DNA of 48,788 nucleotides, from assembly GCA_913041135.1 (NCBI GenBank), contig CAJWIF010000005.1, positions 1 to 48,788 of the forward strand, read 5' to 3'. The translations under genes and the position numbers were made by a program. The notes beneath the pieces are model-generated. The model had not been told where the DNA came from and made no database searches. It saw only the letters and a program-made list of their open reading frames with translations. The stretch is from an uncultured Flavobacteriales bacterium (GTDB lineage: Bacteria; Bacteroidota; Bacteroidia; Flavobacteriales_D; Sanyastnellaceae). Numbering within the stretch: the first letter of the stretch is position 1; each line of letters begins with the position of its first letter. Below are positions 39,319-46,914 of this stretch, piece by piece.

Positions 39319-42300
39319 CTAGCGAGATTTGGACTGCATTTGCCGTTTGAGTTGGCCACCACTGCTATTGGCTCGCATGGTGGGACGACGCTTTGAAGAG
39401 GCATTGGTAGGTCGTGCGTCACGCCCGGGCAATCCCCCCTCGGCGTAGCGTGGATCGGGGATGTAAGCGAGCTTTTCCATCCACAACGCCTCGACGTGGT
39501 AGCAACCGTACTCCTCACGTACGGGACCGCGAATCCGATAGATGCCTTTGCCTCGAAACCCATAGGTGCGCAGTGAGGGAGGAAAGTGCACCGTGTCGAG
39601 CCAAGCACCTTCTCGGTCGACAAAACACCCAAAACACATCCGATCTCCTTTCGATGTGGCGGTTTCCTTGACCGTAACGAGGTACCCGACGACTTCCACC
39701 GTTTGTCCAATGCAATCAGATAGCGCGTCGCTTCTCACACTGCGTTGCGCCACTACTTGCGCCTCCTGAGTGAGCAGTAGAAAGGGCGAAACCAAGGGAA
39801 AGCCAAACAACTCGATTTGATCGAAGGCATCTTCGAGTATCCCCGATTCCAAAGCGGGCAGTGTGAAGCGTCGTGCTTCGGGAGCGAACAGCGTGATTTC
39901 GGGGGCGGAGCGTGATCGGTGTCCAAGCAAAAAATGGGCCTCCCACAGCAGTTGCTGTTTGCTCAAGTCCGTAAACCGAAATCCGCCACAACGGATCAGA
40001 AGCAAGCATTGCTCCAAAGCCAATCCGAGCCGTTCAATGGCGTCTTCCAGTGAAGTGAACGGACCGCATTGCGCGCGATTTTGCATCACAGCCTCGACTG
40101 TTTGTGCCTCGATGCCGCGGACGAGGTTGAACCCCAAATAGATTCGAAGTTCTGACGGATAAACGGTGGCTTCCCAGTGGCCTCGGTTGATGCACGGCTC
40201 CTCCATACGGGCACCGACCATACGCGCTTCATGCACATAAAACTCGGTGCGATAGAACCCCCCGAAATTGTTGATGCAAGCCGTCATGTACTCCAGGGGC
40301 CAATGGGCCTTGAGAAAGAGGCTTTGATAGCTCTCAACAGCGTAAGAAGCAGAATGCCCTTTGGCAAAGGCGTACCCGGCAAAGCTTTCCACTTGGTCCC
40401 AGACTTCATGAACCAATGAAGTCGGCCGGCCGCGTTCCAAGGCCTTTTCAATGAAGGTGTCTCGGGCTTTTGCAAACTCGTTGCGCGATCGAAACTTCCC
40501 GCTCATACCACGGCGCAAGACATCGGCTTCCCCGAGATCGAGCCCAGCGAAGTGGTGGGCCACCTTGATCACGTCTTCTTGATAGACCATCACGCCATAG
40601 GTTTCTGGCATCAATTTCAGAAGGACGGGGTGGGCTTCTTTTCGCCGTTTGGGATCTCGGTGCCGTTCGATGTAGGTGCGCATCATGCCACTTTTGGAAA
40701 CTCCAGGTCGGATGACGGAACTGGCGGCAACCAACCCCAGATAGGTATCGACTTGTAACTTGCGCATGAGCATCCGCATGGCAGGCGATTCGACATAAAA
40801 ACAACCGACAGCCAATGCTTCGCGCAGCAGGTGTTGAATTTTGGGATCGGCTTTGAACCGCTGCATGTCGTGGATATCAAGGGACGCGACAACGGCCGGC
40901 GAGTGGACTGCGATGAGGTCCAAGGTGTCCCGGATCTTTCCGAGTCCCCGCTGACTCAGAATATCAAACTTGAAAAGCCCCACGTCTTCCGCCACGACCA
41001 TATCGAATTGGGTGGTCGGGAACCCCTTGGGTGGCATGAATGTACCGCCATAGTGATGGATGGGATGTTCAGCAATCAGAATGCCACACGAATGGACCGT
41101 CAGTGCGTTGGGAAACTCCCGGAGGTGGCCGGAATAACGCACGACGTATTGGGCCATATCGCTGAGTTGATTGGGGTTGAATTTCCCGTCGGCAAGGGCG
41201 TCGATTTCATGCTTTGGAAGGCCGAATACCTTGCCCAATTCTCGGACGATGGCGCGGTGTTGAAAGGTGCTGTATGCGCCGACGAGGGCGACGTGTTCAA
41301 AGCGCTCGAAAATGTACCGCGTAACGTCATCCCGGTCGGTCCAGGAGAAATCAATGTCAAAGTCGGGGGGATTCGTCCGGTAGAGGTTGATGAACCGTTC
41401 GAAGTACAGATCCAATTCGATCGGGTCCACATCGGTGATGCGCAGGAGATAGGCCACCAAGCTGTTGGCTCCACTTCCTCGGCCGACATAGAAATACCCC
41501 TTACTTCTGGCATAACTGGTGATGTCCCAATTGATCAAGAAATAGGCGAGATAGCCTTGCTTTTGAATGATATGAAGCTCATTCTCCATCCGTTCCAAAA
41601 CGGCCTCCTCATGATCGGGATACCGGTAAGCAAGCCCTTCAGCACACAGGCTACGGATTAGAGATTCATCCCCCTCTTCGCTTTCGGTATAGGTGTGCTG
41701 GTTGTTGTGCATCCGCCCAGCTTCCGGTTCAGGCAATGCGATGGTGCATTGACTTAGAAGTGCTTTGGACCGCTGAATCCACTCGGGGCGTTCTGCGAAT
41801 GCCTGGTGAAGATTGGCTGCGTCCAACAACCGGTCATAGGCATGGCCCGTGGCATCGATGGAAAGCTTACTGAGCAAGGTGTTGTGGTCAATTGCCCGCA
41901 AAAGACGGTGGCAATTCCAATCCCGCTTGTGACGAAACGTAAACGTTTGCAGCGCAAGCAATTTATCCCACGGAATGCGTGATCGCCGTGCGTGATTGCC
42001 TTCTAGGATTCGGAATTCGGCTTGTTCCCATGGGCGCACACCAATCCATTCATGTTCGCGCAGGGGCAGTAAATCGAGGTGCTTGGCTGTACCCCACGGA
42101 TAGATCACGGAGGCATGGGCAAAATCGGGGGCGCGGTCAGGAAAGGGGGTGCCCGAGTGGAGGTGCTGTGAGAGGTGCGCGCAGAGTTCGTGATAACCGG
42201 CGACGTTGTGAGCCAAAGCGATGTACTGCATGTGCCCGTTGTTTCGAAAATCCGTACCCAAAACGGGCCGAATTCCATAACGCGGGGCCAGTCGGACAAA

Positions 42301-42438
42301 ATCCCAGTTGGCCGAAGTGTTGTTGATGTCGGTCAACGCCAGTTCCGTGATCCCAACCGCTTGCGCTTCGGCAAGAAGCTCTTCGGGCCGCATGAGTCCA
42401 TGGCGCAGACTAAACCACGAGTGGCAGTGCAAGTGCAT
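39319..42438 (-). CDS. dnaE2: Second, short DNA polymerase III alpha subunit (DnaE2/ImuC-like, damage tolerance)
   Basis: 1039 residues, far shorter than a replicative DnaE. The PHP domain starts at residue 1 (MHLHCHSWFSLRHG). The polymerase aspartates are in PPDFDIDFSW near 352-361 and KFDILSQRG near 490. Also visible are GRGSGANSLVAYLL near 312, the HHYGG region, RPGVSKSGMM near 580 and GYAFAKGHSASYA near 690. An OB domain lies at about 910-985. A QIELF sequence at about residue 874 could be a clamp-binding site. It is the last gene of the dinB-SRAP-dnaE operon, 11 bases after the SRAP stop. Its place beside DinB argues for translesion synthesis. Confidence 0.92.
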   Translation of the reverse strand: MHLHCHSWFSLRHGLMRPEELLAEAQAVGITELALTDINNTSANWDFVRLAPRYGIRPVLGTDFRNNGHMQYIALAHNVAGYHELCAHLSQHLHSGTPFPDRAPDFAHASVIYPWGTAKHLDLLPLREHEWIGVRPWEQAEFRILEGNHARRSRIPWDKLLALQTFTFRHKRDWNCHRLLRAIDHNTLLSKLSIDATGHAYDRLLDAANLHQAFAERPEWIQRSKALLSQCTIALPEPEAGRMHNNQHTYTESEEGDESLIRSLCAEGLAYRYPDHEEAVLERMENELHIIQKQGYLAYFLINWDITSYARSKGYFYVGRGSGANSLVAYLLRITDVDPIELDLYFERFINLYRTNPPDFDIDFSWTDRDDVTRYIFERFEHVALVGAYSTFQHRAIVRELGKVFGLPKHEIDALADGKFNPNQLSDMAQYVVRYSGHLREFPNALTVHSCGILIAEHPIHHYGGTFMPPKGFPTTQFDMVVAEDVGLFKFDILSQRGLGKIRDTLDLIAVHSPAVVASLDIHDMQRFKADPKIQHLLREALAVGCFYVESPAMRMLMRKLQVDTYLGLVAASSVIRPGVSKSGMMRTYIERHRDPKRRKEAHPVLLKLMPETYGVMVYQEDVIKVAHHFAGLDLGEADVLRRGMSGKFRSRNEFAKARDTFIEKALERGRPTSLVHEVWDQVESFAGYAFAKGHSASYAVESYQSLFLKAHWPLEYMTACINNFGGFYRTEFYVHEARMVGARMEEPCINRGHWEATVYPSELRIYLGFNLVRGIEAQTVEAVMQNRAQCGPFTSLEDAIERLGLALEQCLLLIRCGGFRFTDLSKQQLLWEAHFLLGHRSRSAPEITLFAPEARRFTLPALESGILEDAFDQIELFGFPLVSPFLLLTQEAQVVAQRSVRSDALSDCIGQTVEVVGYLVTVKETATSKGDRMCFGCFVDREGAWLDTVHFPPSLRTYGFRGKGIYRIRGPVREEYGCYHVEALWMEKLAYIPDPRYAEGGLPGRDARPTNASSKRRPTMRANSSGGQLKRQMQSKSR

Positions 42439-42449
42439 CGATTTGCGGG

Positions 42450-43280
42450 TTAGGAGAACAGCGCTCCTTGTTCCCCAGAACGGCGATTGCGCGCGCGTGA
42501 CTCTCCCATGCCAAACAGCTCGAGTTCCTGGTGGAGCATGAATTCGTGTTCAACGTGAATGCGTTGGCCAATGGGCAGCAGCAAGTCGGAACCGTTGACC
42601 CGGGGGTCTCGGATTTCGGGTGAAATGGGGTAAGCGTTGAACGCGTTACTGGGAAACGGCCCGAGCATGGCCGTAATGTCCGCGAGGGGCGTGGAAAGGT
42701 CGAGCCAAGCGTGCTCGTTTTCTTCTGGCAATAGCACGGGTGAGCGGTGGTGCCCGATAGTTTGCAGGAGGGTGTTGGCCACCGTGGTGAGGATGGCAAA
42801 CGACCGAATGATTTCTCCGGTTTTGGGATCTGCCCATTCGTCCCAAATCCCCGCCATGGCAAACGGCCTGACACCATTGCGTGGATAGACGAGGTAGGGC
42901 TTGGTGAGTTTTTGCTGCTTGGGACCTTCGATCACAGCATCGGCGAGAATCAGGCACCTCCGGTCGCGGATGGATTGGCGAAACATGGGCTTTTGAATGA
43001 TGCCCATGGCACCCGTGTAGCGCGGATCGTCCTCTTTGTTGTGGTCTCCTTCGGATCGGGCATTGATCATGTAAAACTGCTTCTTGGCCCAGCGCGGTGT
43101 AAAGCCGAACTGCTGCATTTGAAGTGTTTGAGGAGCGTCGCTGGCAATGACGGGAGCCTGTTCTCCGTGAGAAACGTTGGCGTTGGGGCGCCAAGCTGCG
43201 GTGACTTCGGGAGTCGATTGCACGTTGAAGCGTTTTTCGATGGCTTGAACAGAAGAGACGGTGACGTAGCGACCACACAT
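42450..43280 (-). CDS. SRAP (YedK/HMCES-type) abasic-site-crosslinking protein
   Basis: 276 residues. SRAP proteins form a stable covalent link with abasic sites in single-stranded DNA and so protect them. The catalytic Cys2 is exposed after loss of Met1 (MCGRY). The active-site NARSEG is near residue 73 and the conserved histidine segment GHHRSPVLL near 178. The last residues read QGALFS, a fit to the Qxx(L/M)F clamp-binding pentapeptide. A second candidate, QELELF, is near residue 250. Gaps of 12 and 11 bases to dinB and dnaE place it inside the mutagenesis operon. Confidence 0.95.
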   Translation of the reverse strand: MCGRYVTVSSVQAIEKRFNVQSTPEVTAAWRPNANVSHGEQAPVIASDAPQTLQMQQFGFTPRWAKKQFYMINARSEGDHNKEDDPRYTGAMGIIQKPMFRQSIRDRRCLILADAVIEGPKQQKLTKPYLVYPRNGVRPFAMAGIWDEWADPKTGEIIRSFAILTTVANTLLQTIGHHRSPVLLPEENEHAWLDLSTPLADITAMLGPFPSNAFNAYPISPEIRDPRVNGSDLLLPIGQRIHVEHEFMLHQELELFGMGESRARNRRSGEQGALFS

Positions 43281-43292
43281 GATGCGATGAAT

Positions 43293-44525
43293 TTACTGAT
43301 GACGGTTGGCAAGAAGCAAGGGCGCTTCTCCATTAAAAGGATTGGGACGGCCGATGGTACGCGCTTCAAGGCCCGCGGCAGCGACAATGCTGCGGTCGCC
43401 ATATTGGTTGCGAATGCGGTCTAAAGCGCGGTAGAGGTGCAAGCGCTCATCCGTGTCTTCGAAGAGATCCATTTGACAGGCTCCTTCGAGGAGGTTGGTA
43501 TATCGGACGCCAATGAGTCGAACCTGCACCCTGCGATCGTACAGCTGCTCGAAGAGCGCCTTGATTTTGGGCAACAGGATGTGGTCGGATGCGGTATACG
43601 CAATACGGGATTGCAGTGAGCGGGTGTCGAAATCGGCGTACCGAATTTTCACCGAGATGCAAGCAGTGAGCTTGTTGCCGCGCCGCAATTGGTAGGCGAG
43701 GTTTTCCGCCATGGCAATCAAAATTCCGCGAAGCTTTTCGATATCCGTGGTGTCTTTGGCAAAGGTCCGTTCTGTAGAAATGGACTTGCGCTCGTTGAAA
43801 GCCACCACAGGACTGGTATCGATCCCATGGGACTTTCGCCAAATAGCACTGCCGTTTTGACCCAAGACCTGCTCCATCAATTCCACGGGCATCTCTTGGA
43901 TGGTATGGATACGACGAACGCCTAGATTCCGTAACGTTTGGTAAGTTTTGGTCCCCACCTGGGGAATTTTCCGAATGGAAAGAGGTCCGAGAAAGGGGCG
44001 TTCCGTGCCGCTATCGACCCGGATGTTCCCGGAGGGCTTGGCTTCCCCCGTAGCGACCTTACTCACCGTTTTACTCGTGCTAAGGCCGAATGAAATGGGC
44101 AACCCGGTCTCGCGAATCACTTTCTGCCGCAATTCACGTGAGAAATCCCAGCAGCCATAAAACCGATCCATGCCGCTGAGGTCGGCATAAAATTCATCGA
44201 TGGAAGTTTTCTCGCAAACAGGGACGGCTTCGCGTACAATTTCGGTTACCAAATCCGAGTGCTTCATGTAGTTGCTCGAATGCCCGCGAATCACAAGCGC
44301 TTCGGGGCACATGGCGCGGGCTTGCCGCATCGGCATTCCCGAGTGGACACCAAACGCTCGGGTCTCATAGCTGCAGGCAGCAACCACTCCTCGATCACCC
44401 GTTCCGCCAATCAGAATGGGCTGGCCGTTGAGGCGACGGTCCATGAGCCGTTCGACCGACACAAAAAACGTGTCGAGATCAAGGTGGAGAATAGCCCGTT
44501 GAGGGGATGTTGGATTTGTTTTCAT
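43293..44525 (-). CDS. dinB: Y-family DNA polymerase (DinB/UmuC-like)
   Basis: A translesion polymerase, 410 residues. Metal-binding Asp16 lies in HLDLDTFF, with Asp110-Glu111 in KTSIDEFYADLSG. The steric and nucleotide-site motif is AACSYETRAFGVHSGMP (49-65). The thumb and little-finger regions contain IPQVGTKTYQTLRNLGV and ISTERTF. The tail has QMDLF at about 351-355, a good clamp-binding pentapeptide, followed by a UmuC-like ALDRIRNQYG segment. It is the first gene of the operon, with a perfect operator palindrome 5 bases upstream of the start and a promoter further up. Confidence 0.95.
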   Translation of the reverse strand: MKTNPTSPQRAILHLDLDTFFVSVERLMDRRLNGQPILIGGTGDRGVVAACSYETRAFGVHSGMPMRQARAMCPEALVIRGHSSNYMKHSDLVTEIVREAVPVCEKTSIDEFYADLSGMDRFYGCWDFSRELRQKVIRETGLPISFGLSTSKTVSKVATGEAKPSGNIRVDSGTERPFLGPLSIRKIPQVGTKTYQTLRNLGVRRIHTIQEMPVELMEQVLGQNGSAIWRKSHGIDTSPVVAFNERKSISTERTFAKDTTDIEKLRGILIAMAENLAYQLRRGNKLTACISVKIRYADFDTRSLQSRIAYTASDHILLPKIKALFEQLYDRRVQVRLIGVRYTNLLEGACQMDLFEDTDERLHLYRALDRIRNQYGDRSIVAAAGLEARTIGRPNPFNGEAPLLLANRHQ

Positions 44526-44529
44526 CGGG

Positions 44530-44552
44530 ATTTGCTAAAATACGTAGCAAAT
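44530..44552 (-). promoter_or_regulatory. Operator O1 in the dinB leader
   Basis: ATTTGCTA-N7-TAGCAAAT, perfect 8-bp arms around AAATACG. The core TTGCTA-N7-TAGCAA (44532-44550) is identical in arms and spacing to the palindrome upstream of the XRE-S24 regulator gene. It would block the ribosome binding region or early transcription of dinB. Confidence 0.8.
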
Positions 44553-44572
44553 CCATGATAAATAGCAAAAAA

Positions 44573-44604
44573 GCTAAAATTTATAGCATACAGGGTTGTC
44601 CAAA
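44573..44604 (-). promoter_or_regulatory. Promoter of the dinB operon with second operator O2
   Basis: Minus-strand TTTG (44604-44601), 17 bases, TAAATTTT (44583-44576) fits a Bacteroidota promoter except for the last base. The -7 box lies in the spacer of GCTA-N7-TAGC (44573-44587), a shortened form of the TTGCTA-N7-TAGCAA operator. It overlaps the end of the metalloprotease gene. Confidence 0.6.
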
Positions 44605-46023
44605 AGCGGAAAGGATCGCTAAAACATCCTCGATTGTGCTCGCTCCATCGCCTGTGACATCACCCGAACACTCCTCCAAACAACCAAAATCAGCCAGTAG
44701 AAGAAGCACATCTTGTACTTCGGTGAGGCCGTTCCCGCTCAAATCGGTCAGGCAACCGCATGAAATGGGAGCAATAAAGGCGTTTTCATACACCGCGTTA
44801 CAGGAGGCCTCAGCGGTAAATTGAACGCTGATGTCTACAGGCAATCCGTTGGCTTCTAGCCCTGTGAGATTGATTGTTTGCGGGCTTTCAGTCGTCAGAT
44901 AGAGCGCTCCGTTCACTTGAATCAGACCGGTGGCTGGTCCGGCTTGATAGCTGAGTGTAATTTCTTGGCTATAGGTTCCTAGATCTTCATTGCATGACGT
45001 TTGTGGCCCAAGGGTGATGTCCGTCCACTCACAACCGCCAATGACCCACCCCATGTCTTCGAACATGCCTAAGATGGCGGGTCCCGGGTTGTGATTCGAT
45101 TCGGCTGCGTTCAAAGCAGGTGTCATCAAGGCATTGGGACTTCCTGCCGGATAGGTCGATTCGTTCAGGTGGGAATAGCTCGATCCAGGTTCGTAATTGG
45201 AAGGGGCGTGCAAACGCGGCCGTCCTCCACCCACGCCCTCAGCACCACTGCTCCCGTTCCAATAGAGTTGGTTGGACGTGAGGGCATTCCCCAGTGCAGA
45301 GGAACCATTACTGAGATCCAACAAGGCAATGGAGTCGATGGTTTCCGTAAAGTGATCATACACATACGGGGTGTTGGCTGTGCCTAAGAATCCGAATCCG
45401 TTGGTGAAGTATGCGCTTCCAATGAATCCGATCCCATGCCCAATTTCATGCAAAGCGGCGGTGATGAAATCGTAATGACCAGCCGGAGCTTGACCGTCTA
45501 AGCCGAAATACCAGTTGGCCGTGCTGTTAAACGAACACGCGATATCGGACTGGGGGCTGAGGTCATTTCCGTTGAGCGCATTGGCCAGAGCTGCCGCATA
45601 ATAGGTGTCTGCAAAAGCGGCACCTTGAAAATTTTCATGCAAGTTGTTTGGGCCAGCTTGCGCTAAGGTTCCTACGGTCAACGTTTCCCACGAGGCGTCA
45701 ATGCATATGGTGATGTCAGAAGTTAAAAAGGCCGACCAGAGGTCAACGGCGGCATCAAAAGCGAGTATTGCTTCGGCTGGAAAGTTGCTGTAAGTCACGA
45801 GAAACGAGGCGTCTCGTTCGGTAAATTCATCGATCCATGCCGGTGCAGGGGTGTAGCTGAATGCGTTCTCTTCCAGGGCCATCAGTCCGTCTCCACATGC
45901 GCTCGGGTGACTGCACGCGTGTTCAATCCCAAAGTATCGCTGTGCGAACAGGGAGTGTCCCCAAACGGAAGCGAGTGCAAACAGAACGTATGAGGCGAGA
46001 AATGAGCGCGGCATCAAAGGCAA
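44581..46023 (-). CDS. Secreted zinc metalloprotease-like protein with dockerin-type repeat
   Basis: 480 residues (or 477 from the second Met). The signal peptide is MPRSFLASYVLFALASVWGHSLFAQ. The protease-type domain has HEIGHGIGF at 192-200, an HExxHxxG zinc motif. Position +10 from the first His is Gly, not the third His of standard metzincins, so the third ligand is unclear. A later MFEDMGW motif near 345 fits a Bacteroidota family of secreted proteins. The C-terminus has two dockerin-like, EF-hand-like stretches (DLSGNGLTEVQDVLLLLADFG and DVTGDGASTIEDVLAILSAFG, each about 21 residues), and ends PCML. No T9SS domain is evident. It lies between the mutagenesis operon and its likely regulator. 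Confidence 0.82.
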   Translation of the reverse strand: MPLMPRSFLASYVLFALASVWGHSLFAQRYFGIEHACSHPSACGDGLMALEENAFSYTPAPAWIDEFTERDASFLVTYSNFPAEAILAFDAAVDLWSAFLTSDITICIDASWETLTVGTLAQAGPNNLHENFQGAAFADTYYAAALANALNGNDLSPQSDIACSFNSTANWYFGLDGQAPAGHYDFITAALHEIGHGIGFIGSAYFTNGFGFLGTANTPYVYDHFTETIDSIALLDLSNGSSALGNALTSNQLYWNGSSGAEGVGGGRPRLHAPSNYEPGSSYSHLNESTYPAGSPNALMTPALNAAESNHNPGPAILGMFEDMGWVIGGCEWTDITLGPQTSCNEDLGTYSQEITLSYQAGPATGLIQVNGALYLTTESPQTINLTGLEANGLPVDISVQFTAEASCNAVYENAFIAPISCGCLTDLSGNGLTEVQDVLLLLADFGCLEECSGDVTGDGASTIEDVLAILSAFGQPCML

Positions 46024-46044
46024 TTTGGCTTAATGAAGATAAAT

Positions 46045-46052
46045 CAAATTTA
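46045..46052 (-). promoter_or_regulatory. -7 box of the metalloprotease gene
   Basis: TAAATTTG on the minus strand is a full match to TAnnTTTG and ends 21 bases before the ATG at 46023. No -33 TTG at the usual spacing is seen. It lies 22 bases from the regulator operator. Confidence 0.45.
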
Positions 46053-46074
46053 TTTAGGTACCTTTTCGTTTGCA

Positions 46075-46093
46075 TTGCTACATTTGATAGCAA
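46075..46093 (+). promoter_or_regulatory. Operator and -7 box of the XRE-S24 regulator gene
   Basis: TTGCTA-CATTTGA-TAGCAA has perfect 6-bp arms and 7-bp spacing, the same as O1 at dinB. The -7 box TACATTTG (46079-46086) is embedded in it, so a bound repressor would cover the promoter. A further half-site TAGCT follows at 46096. The ATG of the regulator is 14 bases after the palindrome. This implies autoregulation. Confidence 0.8.
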
Positions 46094-46107: not shown

Positions 46108-46914
46108 ATGTCCAATACCTCGCTTCCATTGTTCGCTAAGAACCTCAAGTCCTTGCGGAAAGCGAAGGGCTGGACGCAACAAGAGCTGGCGGACCGCATG
46201 GGAATCAAGCGCGCTGCCCTAGGCGCTTATGAGGAGGGTCGATCTGAGCCGCGGTTGGCAAATGTTCTAGCCATGGCCGACTTGTTAGGGGTGTCGACTG
46301 ATGCCATGATGCGCGGGGTGAATGCCAAGGAAATTCAGGAAAGTCGAACCAACGGGCATCGCCTACGGGTACTTACCGTTCCTGTGAACAACGAAACGAA
46401 CGAGGAGCATGTGGCCGTGGTTCCTGTTCGCGCCGCTGCGGGTTATTTGGAGGGCTACAGCGATCCGGACTTTGTGCAAACCCTTCCGACCTTTGATTTG
46501 CCCATCCCCGAAGTGTCCCCGTATCGAACGTATCGCTTGTTTCAAATAGAAGGGGATAGCATGTTGCCCATCCCAAGCGGTAGTTACATTTTGGCGTCGT
46601 TCGAACCGGATTGGAATCATTCGGGGGGTATGCGACCGTATATCGTGGTCACGCGAAACGATGGGATTGTTTTCAAGCGCATCGAAAATCGATTGGATAC
46701 GGATCACGAGGATTTCCGGATGATTTCGGACAATCCAGATTACCCTCCCTATGCGGTCCAACCCGATCAGATTTCAGAAGTGTGGCGCGCTCAAGCGTAT
46801 CTCGCTTTCGATTGGCCAACACCGGCATTTTCTGGAATGGAACGGATTCAAGGAACCCTGGATGCGTTGCGCCAGGAGATTGGCTCCATGAAAGGAGAGG
46901 TCTCCAACAATTGA
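46108..46914 (+). CDS. XRE-family repressor with S24 (LexA/CI-type) autocleavage domain
   Basis: 268 residues. The helix-turn-helix fills about 8-65 (LRKAKGWTQQELADRMGIKRAALGAYEEGRSEPR). The S24 peptidase-like domain follows: a predicted cleavage site Ala111-Gly112 (VRAAAGYLEGY), catalytic Ser151 (EGDSMLPI) and Lys190 (GIVFKRI). This is the LexA and lambda CI plan, so DNA damage and RecA filaments should trigger self-cleavage. The C-terminus (GTLDALRQEIGSMKGEV) looks like a short coiled coil. It carries the TTGCTA-N7-TAGCAA operator in its own promoter and at the dinB operon. No phage genes are near, so it is unlikely to be a prophage repressor. Confidence 0.93.
   Translation: MSNTSLPLFAKNLKSLRKAKGWTQQELADRMGIKRAALGAYEEGRSEPRLANVLAMADLLGVSTDAMMRGVNAKEIQESRTNGHRLRVLTVPVNNETNEEHVAVVPVRAAAGYLEGYSDPDFVQTLPTFDLPIPEVSPYRTYRLFQIEGDSMLPIPSGSYILASFEPDWNHSGGMRPYIVVTRNDGIVFKRIENRLDTDHEDFRMISDNPDYPPYAVQPDQISEVWRAQAYLAFDWPTPAFSGMERIQGTLDALRQEIGSMKGEVSNN

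What the first reader, a model, noticed from the sequence alone, without database searches (positions are those of the whole stretch)
44530..46093. Shared TTGCTA-N7-TAGCAA palindrome defines a candidate SOS operator
The same 6-bp arms with the same 7-bp spacing occur just upstream of dinB (44532-44550, arms extend to 8 bp) and of the XRE-S24 repressor gene (46075-46093). A degenerate copy (GCTA-N7-TAGC, 44573-44587) sits on the -7 box of the dinB promoter, just as the regulator copy contains its own -7 box TACATTTG. Two perfect gapped palindromes at exactly the expected places are unlikely by chance. The motif does not resemble the E. coli or Bacillus LexA boxes as I know them. It would be the operator of a lineage-specific damage response.
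Basis: partly seen in the sequence, partly recalled or inferred. Interest (0 to 1): 0.85.

Follow-up and report, generated by a model that had tools for sequence, protein, structure and literature searches.

The report
Diverged SOS operator of Bacteroidota LexA
The repeated palindrome is very probably the switch by which a self-cleaving repressor keeps an error-prone DNA copying operon silent until DNA is damaged; it is a locally changed form of a switch already known from this phylum, and here it does not include the main repair gene recA.

Summary
TTGCTA-N7-TAGCAA occurs at 44532-44550 (arms run to 10 bp) and 46075-46093, and nowhere else in the 2.3-Mb draft genome (about 0.13 expected). In the genus a site lies just upstream of 18 of 18 S24 genes and 16 of 16 dinB genes examined, the latter with a relaxed pattern. 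The S24 protein keeps the Ala-Gly bond and Ser-Lys dyad. It fits the published non-canonical LexA family of Bacteroidetes (PMC8565304), whose CTAA-N5-TTAG operator is in exact register: TTG-CTAx-N5-xTAG-CAA. So this is a derived operator of a known repressor family.

The regulon looks tiny: the repressor gene and dinB-SRAP-dnaE2. It carries another palindrome, GTAA-N5-TTAC (64 of 69 recA upstreams examined), found also beside a WYL-regulator gene and in genera without S24. In S24-less genus g12, dinB carries that operator instead (6 of 6 examined). The family's damage response thus seems split, with dinB able to change hands. Binding, cleavage and damage induction are inferred.

The parts
44528..44554 (.). 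dinB operator: 10-bp arms GGATTTGCTA / TAGCAAATCC with 7-bp spacer; core TTGCTA-N7-TAGCAA 44532-44550, ending 6 nt before the dinB ATG
   Evidence: site at the same distance (-25) in 16 of 16 genus dinB upstreams examined, relaxed pattern
46075..46093 (.). S24 operator TTGCTACATTTGATAGCAA; contains the -7-like box TACATTTG (46079-46086); ends 14 nt before the S24 ATG, in the divergent region shared with the metalloprotease-like gene
   Evidence: found in 18 of 18 genus S24 upstreams, 17 exact and one with 1 mismatch
44571..44589 (.). degenerate second copy AAGCTAAAATTTATAGCAT upstream of dinB (weak candidate)
   Evidence: 3 mismatches, background level; GCTA-N7-TAGC core kept in three close relatives, L089, L091, L092
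46108..46914 (+). XRE-S24 repressor, 268 aa, non-canonical LexA type: HTH_3, Ala111-Gly112 bond, Ser151/Lys190 dyad
   Evidence: Pfam HTH_3 5.8e-17 and Peptidase_S24 1.4e-6; the four residues identical in 62 of 62 aligned; model and fold matches
43293..44525 (-). dinB, Y-family (Pol IV-like) polymerase, 410 aa, first gene of the controlled operon
   Evidence: Pfam IMS 3.4e-41
42450..43280 (-). SOS-response-associated peptidase (SRAP), second gene, 12 nt after dinB
   Evidence: Pfam SRAP 7.6e-45
39319..42438 (-). DnaE-type polymerase (error-prone DnaE2-like by its place; the subtype is inferred), third gene, 11 nt after SRAP
   Evidence: Pfam DNA_pol3_alpha 8.8e-59; NCBIfam polc superfamily over its cut-off; its error-prone DNA polymerase model 3.9e-131 is below cut-off and ranks third
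44581..46023 (-). secreted metalloprotease-like protein with dockerin-like end, between repressor and dinB; diverges from the repressor across the 46075 operator, so possibly controlled too
   Evidence: NCBIfam NF038122 3.2e-18, below cut-off; no Pfam match; within 600 bp of S24 in 45 of 61 loci

Best explanation
The palindrome is the operator of the S24 repressor encoded at 46108-46914, a member of the Bacteroidetes non-canonical LexA family. A repressor dimer binds the two half-sites at each copy. At 46075 it covers the -7 box of its own promoter (autorepression); at 44532 it covers the start region of the dinB-SRAP-dnaE2 operon. When DNA damage makes RecA filaments, the repressor cuts itself at Ala111-Gly112 with Ser151/Lys190, leaves the operators, and the translesion operon and the repressor gene are switched on. 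Shown here: the sites, their conservation, the gene order, the intact cleavage residues, the register with the published CTAA-N5-TTAG operator. Inferred: binding, one transcript for the three genes, RecA-driven cleavage, damage induction. The regulon in this genome is probably just these two promoters (perhaps also the divergent metalloprotease gene); recA is not in it.
For: Exact motif only at these two promoters in 2.3 Mb (0.125 expected). Genus: site in 18 of 18 S24 and 16 of 16 dinB upstreams examined (dinB pattern relaxed after seeing the sequences); the G063 dinB, on another contig, has it too. Test that fixes only a GC in each arm (NNGCNN-N7-NNGCNN, at least 5 of 6 arm pairs, 100 b): S24 g1 16 of 17, shuffled mean 0.28; S24 g18 5 of 7, 0.09; dinB g1 12 of 15, 0.47; dinB g20 11 of 13, 0.29. 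Arms change by genus with one geometry: TTGCTA/C in g1, TTGCTC-N7-GAGCAA in g18, ATGCCA-N7-TGGCAT in g20. Same register as CTAA-N5-TTAG, found within 150 b upstream of 27 of 80 wider S24 relatives and of dinB in 6 of 14 S24-bearing genomes, with complete TTGCTAA-N5-TTAGCAA in G039 and G040, against 0 of 20 S24-lacking genomes. Cleavage residues identical in 62 of 62. Fold matches: lambda CI, 186 CI, LexA. PMC8565304 (parts read) shows binding by EMSA and mitomycin induction for members of the family.
Against: No binding or expression data. Relaxed patterns show no genome-wide excess. In g20 the S24 gene lies behind nfu with no site of its own (0 of 12); g14 has none by that test at either gene (0 of 2 each), g7 none at S24 (0 of 1). 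In g18 only 1 of 7 dinB sites passes 5 of 6 arm pairs. 8 of 14 S24-bearing genomes lack exact CTAA-N5-TTAG at dinB, though 4 of those 8 keep a TTTTAGCA half-site. Flanks of these related genomes are also partly conserved (0.57 to 0.77), and the column conservation is of sites picked by pattern. CTAA-N5-TTAG also occurs once upstream of recA of G025, a genus-g8 genome without an S24 match. Four of 22 genus drafts show neither S24 nor dinB.
Confidence: 0.84

Rival explanations
1. The palindromes bind a different regulator (for instance one responding to another stress), and the S24 protein is only a neighbour.
For: Binding was not tested; HTH-family regulators often sit beside unrelated targets (general knowledge).
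Against: S24-lacking genera have dinB but 0 of 20 examined carry CTAA-N5-TTAG there; the site lies at the S24 gene's own promoter in 18 of 18 genus members; members of the protein family bind a motif in the same register (PMC8565304).
Confidence: 0.07
2. The dinB copy acts in RNA: a hairpin just before the start codon limits translation, and the S24 copy is an operator or a promoter feature only.
For: The dinB leader strand folds with a 10-pair stem ending just before the ATG, z -4.4, 1 of 200 shuffles as good.
Against: The S24 copy does not fold unusually (z 0.4); a perfect DNA palindrome always yields an RNA hairpin; same arms at both promoters; 12 of the 16 genus dinB sites have an unpaired arm position, TTGCTC against TAGCAA or the like.
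Confidence: 0.05
3. Chance or plain promoter conservation: conserved -7 and start regions that happen to look palindromic.
For: The spacer is conserved too (0.90 and 0.93) and carries TAnnTTTG at the S24 site; no excess of near-matches in the genome.
Against: 0.125 expected exact hits against 2, both at these promoters; shuffled controls; arms that keep their symmetry while changing between genera.
Confidence: 0.04

Closest known systems
Non-canonical LexA of the Bacteroidetes, CTAA-N5-TTAG group (PMC8565304)
   Same: S24 domain with Ala-Gly bond and Ser-Lys dyad, CI-type HTH, extra C-terminal helix in the model, palindrome with fixed spacer in the same register, own gene and error-prone polymerase as targets
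   Different: Inner arm position relaxed (CTAx), outer TTG/CAA fixed; the window sites are CTAC-ATTTG-ATAG and CTAA-AATAC-GTAG, not exact CTAA-N5-TTAG; regulon of two promoters, without recA
Elizabethkingia anophelis SOS regulator with TTAC-AAATT-GTAA (same paper)
   Same: Diverged palindrome of the same family, beside an oppositely oriented error-prone polymerase gene
   Different: Other arms; there tested by EMSA and RT-qPCR
HdiR and UmuDAb minimal SOS systems (as described in PMC8565304)
   Same: S24 repressor controlling mainly error-prone polymerases
   Different: Separate origins according to that paper (phage repressor clade; UmuD clade)
Canonical LexA
   Same: Function (inferred) and C-terminal peptidase fold
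   Different: No LexA winged-helix domain among the Pfam matches; other box (recalled)

Membership tests
Bacteroidetes non-canonical LexA (protein family) | CI-type HTH (PF01381) at the N terminus | tested here: met
   HTH_3 5.8e-17; the HTH part matches C.AhdI (rmsd 1.1 over 62 columns) and lambda CI
Bacteroidetes non-canonical LexA (protein family) | S24 domain with Ala-Gly bond and Ser-Lys dyad | tested here: met
   Peptidase_S24 1.4e-6; A111, G112, S151, K190 identical in 62 of 62
Bacteroidetes non-canonical LexA (protein family) | Extra C-terminal helix absent from LexA and CI | tested here: met
   Helix 244-266 in the model, but local pLDDT only about 53-69
Bacteroidetes non-canonical LexA (protein family) | Clade with the characterised members | tested here: inconclusive
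   The two characterised proteins were not in the tree. The tree splits 47 sequences with the window (15 with CTAA-N5-TTAG upstream) from 24 others: 16 of the order, mostly SGYEN-type (support 1.0), and 8 with two Pontibacter. So the window is not especially near Pontibacter
Bacteroidetes non-canonical LexA (protein family) | Operator on own gene and on an error-prone polymerase gene | tested here: met
Bacteroidetes non-canonical LexA (protein family) | Specific binding and damage-induced derepression | not testable with these tools
   needs protein and cells
CTAA-N5-TTAG operator (DNA motif) | Exact CTAA-N5-TTAG consensus | tested here: not met
   Window sites are CTAC-N5-ATAG and CTAA-N5-GTAG in register; filed as a derived variant, not as this motif
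Canonical LexA | Winged-helix LexA DNA-binding domain | tested here: not met
   Only HTH_3-type Pfam families match the N terminus

The most novel reading that the evidence does not exclude
This family of Flavobacteriales runs a split DNA-damage response. A non-canonical LexA holds only the translesion operon through the TTGCTA-type operator. recA and a small gene or operon beside a WYL-domain regulator (PafBC/DriD-like, sensing single-stranded DNA) answer to a second operator, GTAA-N5-TTAC. When a lineage loses the S24 repressor, dinB can be rewired to the second operator, as in genus g12.
Probability: 0.45. Interest if true: 0.75.

Novelty: new variant of a known kind. Interest (0 to 1): 0.5.

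Why it matters
It extends the known non-canonical LexA family to a derived operator with a series of related forms (CTAA-N5-TTAG, TTGCTAA-N5-TTAGCAA, TTGCTA-N7-TAGCAA, TTGCTC, ATGCCA), which makes co-evolution of repressor and operator testable. It also suggests an SOS regulon shrunk to one mutagenic cassette, with recA under a separate, more widely conserved operator. If the WYL link is right, it answers how recA is controlled in Bacteroidota that lack a LexA, and shows a polymerase gene passing from one damage regulator to another.

Tried and rejected
Genome-wide regulon by relaxed motif: rejected; no excess at 2 mismatches. Off-target places inspected: 13 of the 64 non-exact places in the own genome and 7 of the 16 off-target places of the genus search; 20 of these 20 lie inside an ORF of at least 100 aa. 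An eighth of those 16, in G063, lies inside dnaE2 coding sequence; the other 8 were not inspected. recA under the same operator: rejected for the genus.

Assignment to the published GGA-N5-TCC group: no such site within 200 b upstream of any of 20 order-level relatives, so that group could not be anchored. The tree (the first run failed in its display step) was midpoint-rooted and lacks the two characterised proteins; it does not join the window with Pontibacter, as I had first expected. Sigma-70 promoter scan: no site; it does not cover Bacteroidota promoters. uvr and other single repair genes were not looked up by family; only the motif was scanned genome-wide.

Papers: PMC8565304: abstract, most of Results and the first part of the Discussion. 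PMC6789036 and PMC13148647: passages only. Others: search listings. Searches for WYL with recA and Bacteroidetes (22 papers, 12 listed), Bacteroidota (26, 8 listed) and Flavobacterium (none): no listed title or abstract start names a GTAA-N5-TTAC element; I did not read these papers through, and supplements were not available. The window motif itself was not searched as text.

Full report
What is there. The two perfect copies of TTGCTA-N7-TAGCAA are at 44532-44550 and 46075-46093. The first has 10-bp arms, GGATTTGCTA/TAGCAAATCC. In the genome as held (2,295,495 bases, 174 contigs, 95% complete) the exact motif occurs at these two places only, the backwards control at none; the window's base composition predicts 0.125. 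With up to 2 mismatches the motif is not in excess (66 against 119 backwards), and in the window at up to 3 mismatches it is at the shuffled level (15 against 14.8). So the case rests on the exact pair, its places and its conservation, not on a large set of sites.

Neighbourhood. The + strand gene 46108-46914 codes for an XRE-S24 protein (HTH_3 5.8e-17, Peptidase_S24 1.4e-6). On the - strand lie dinB (43293-44525), SRAP (42450-43280) and a DnaE-type polymerase (39319-42438), 12 and 11 nt apart, which reads as one operon; an intervening metalloprotease-like gene (44581-46023) diverges from the repressor gene.

Conservation. Of 114 genomes of the family, 67 have a match to the S24 protein at E 1e-3. 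By the listed E-values 62 of these are strong (3.4e-40 or better), in 14 of 21 genera, and 5 are weak matches of the HTH part (about 1e-4). In the genus, the site lies within 80 bp upstream in 18 of 18 S24 genes (17 exact, one with one mismatch) and 16 of 16 dinB genes in the stretches examined (pattern TTGCT[AC]-N7-TAG[CT]A[AG], relaxed after seeing them); the dinB of G063, on another contig, has it too. Four of 22 genus drafts have neither an S24 nor a dinB match (G050, G056, G057, G066; 64-87% complete). A count that fixes only a GC in each arm, with shuffled controls, agrees for g1 (S24 16 of 17, dinB 12 of 15), g18 S24 (5 of 7), g20 dinB (11 of 13) and g7 dinB (1 of 1), and fails for g20 S24 (0 of 12), g14 (0 of 2 at each gene), g7 S24 (0 of 1) and most of g18 dinB (1 of 7). 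Arms differ by genus with one geometry.

Relation to the known motif. Sanchez-Osuna et al. 2021 (PMC8565304; parts read) describe S24 repressors in Bacteroidetes with CI-like DNA-binding domains that bind GGA-N5-TCC or CTAA-N5-TTAG, are induced by mitomycin C, and have diverged palindromes in some lineages. The window motif is in exact register with the second: TTG-CTAx-N5-xTAG-CAA. Exact CTAA-N5-TTAG stands within 150 b upstream of 27 of 80 S24 relatives fetched with titles, two Pontibacter among them, and the full TTGCTAA-N5-TTAGCAA stands upstream of dinB in G039 and G040.

The protein. Ala111, Gly112, Ser151 and Lys190 are identical in 62 of 62 aligned sequences (invariant also in the 20). 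The model (mean pLDDT 78, pTM 0.56) has a recognition helix at 35-42 and a C-terminal helix at 244-266 as the paper describes, though that helix is of low confidence. Best PDB matches are lambda CI, a lambda-186 hybrid, and LexA (E 1.9e-8 to 1e-5), but over the whole chain with TM-scores (by query) of only about 0.3-0.4 and large rmsd, as expected if the two domains are placed differently; the single domains fit better (C.AhdI HTH rmsd 1.1; LexA C-terminal fragments TM by target 0.6-0.7). In a 71-sequence tree (midpoint root) the window is in a group of 47, of which 15 have CTAA-N5-TTAG upstream in the set. The other side has 24: 16 order-level sequences, mostly SGYEN-type (support 1.0), and 8 others with the two Pontibacter, whose own upstreams also carry CTAA-N5-TTAG. 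CTAA-type sites thus lie on both sides, and the tree does not by itself place the window in the paper's CTAA cluster.

How it works. The S24 copy spans a -7 box of Bacteroidota type (consensus recalled) in 18 of 18 cases, so a bound repressor would block its own promoter; the dinB copy ends 6 nt before the start codon. Loss of binding after self-cleavage would induce both. Cleavage and induction are inferred from the family.

Extent of the regulon. In 21 genus recA upstreams (150 b) the closest match to TTGCTM-N7-KAGCAA has 3 to 5 mismatches, and CTAA-N5-TTAG is absent. They carry CGTAA-N5-TTACG instead. Of 98 family genomes with a recA match, 69 recA upstreams were examined, and 64 contain GTAA-N5-TTAC, shuffled mean 0.19 and maximum 2. 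These include 16 of 16 in the seven genera without S24. The five misses are in g2, g10 (two), g11 and g18. One S24-less genome, G025, has in addition CTAA-N5-TTAG before recA, which my reading does not explain. The exact element CGTAA-N5-TTACG occurs one to three times per genome in 22 of 22 genus genomes, in 18 of them fewer than the backwards control, so it is its places that speak, not its number. One place is recA (22 of 22). The other recurrent one (21 of 22, by the places) lies next to a WYL-WCX regulator gene, before a gene for a protein of about 95-100 aa without a Pfam family above cut-off. The site lies between the WYL gene and that small gene in 20 of 20 genus loci and 17 of 30 other loci examined; in 3 of the 13 misses the small gene itself was not found. 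The WYL gene is in 98 of 114 genomes, S24-lacking genera included. In the single-contig genome G047 the narrower pattern CGTAAATNNNTTACG has three places: recA and two in the WYL operon. In G048 it has seven: recA, two in the WYL operon, and four others, one of them 39 bp before a calcineurin-like phosphoesterase gene that looks SbcD-like (SbcD by eye).

Change of hands. dinB upstreams (260 b) were examined in 34 genomes outside g1, g18 and g20. CTAA-N5-TTAG: 6 of 14 with S24, 0 of 20 without. GTAA-N5-TTAC: 0 of 14 with S24, 6 of 20 without, all six from genus g12 (6 of 6 examined, of 8 g12 genomes; for G031 the site is seen with the start taken from the alignment, not with the start codon chosen). 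S24-lacking g3, g6, g8 and g9 have neither at dinB (0 of 14). That the WYL protein is the regulator of the second operator is inferred from neighbourhood and from PafBC (PMC6789036, passages), whose own site is non-palindromic, a point against a simple analogy; presence of WYL and of the recA element could not be contrasted, since nearly every genome has both.

Verdict. An operator of a known repressor family in a derived form, ordinary in kind; its small regulon and the separate recA operator are the interesting part.

Noticed in passing
L213 (G000:C29), about 50 bp upstream of recA: recA carries a palindrome CGTAA-GTTCA-TTACG unrelated to the S24 operator; GTAA-N5-TTAC is in 64 of 69 recA upstreams examined in the family, with and without S24.
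   Followed up: yes
L308 (G000:C117) 1369-2791, site 1725-1739: The same element lies between a WYL-WCX regulator gene and a small unknown gene; this arrangement in 20 of 20 genus loci examined.
   Followed up: partly
L392-L394, L405-L407 (dinB upstreams of genus g12): In S24-less g12, dinB carries GTAA-N5-TTAC in 6 of 6 genomes examined: apparent change of regulator.
   Followed up: partly
window 44581-46023: A secreted metalloprotease-like gene with dockerin-like end lies within 600 bp of the S24 gene in 45 of 61 loci, also in 9 fetched stretches that hold no dinB (in G045 and G047 dinB lies just beyond the stretch). Why is unknown.
   Followed up: partly
window 44520-44600, - strand: The dinB leader folds into a 10-pair hairpin before the ATG, z -4.4.
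   Followed up: partly
L115 and L125: Contigs titled Chryseobacterium gleum (same length and match place as G024:C51) and Sphingomonadales carry S24 genes of this Bacteroidota group; the record titles may be wrong.
   Followed up: no
L437 (G048), site 1501-1515: CGTAA-N5-TTACG 39 bp before a calcineurin-like phosphoesterase gene that looks SbcD-like.
   Followed up: partly
L264 (G025), 38 bp upstream of recA: A genome without an S24 match has CTAA-N5-TTAG as well as GTAA-N5-TTAC before recA; unexplained.
   Followed up: no
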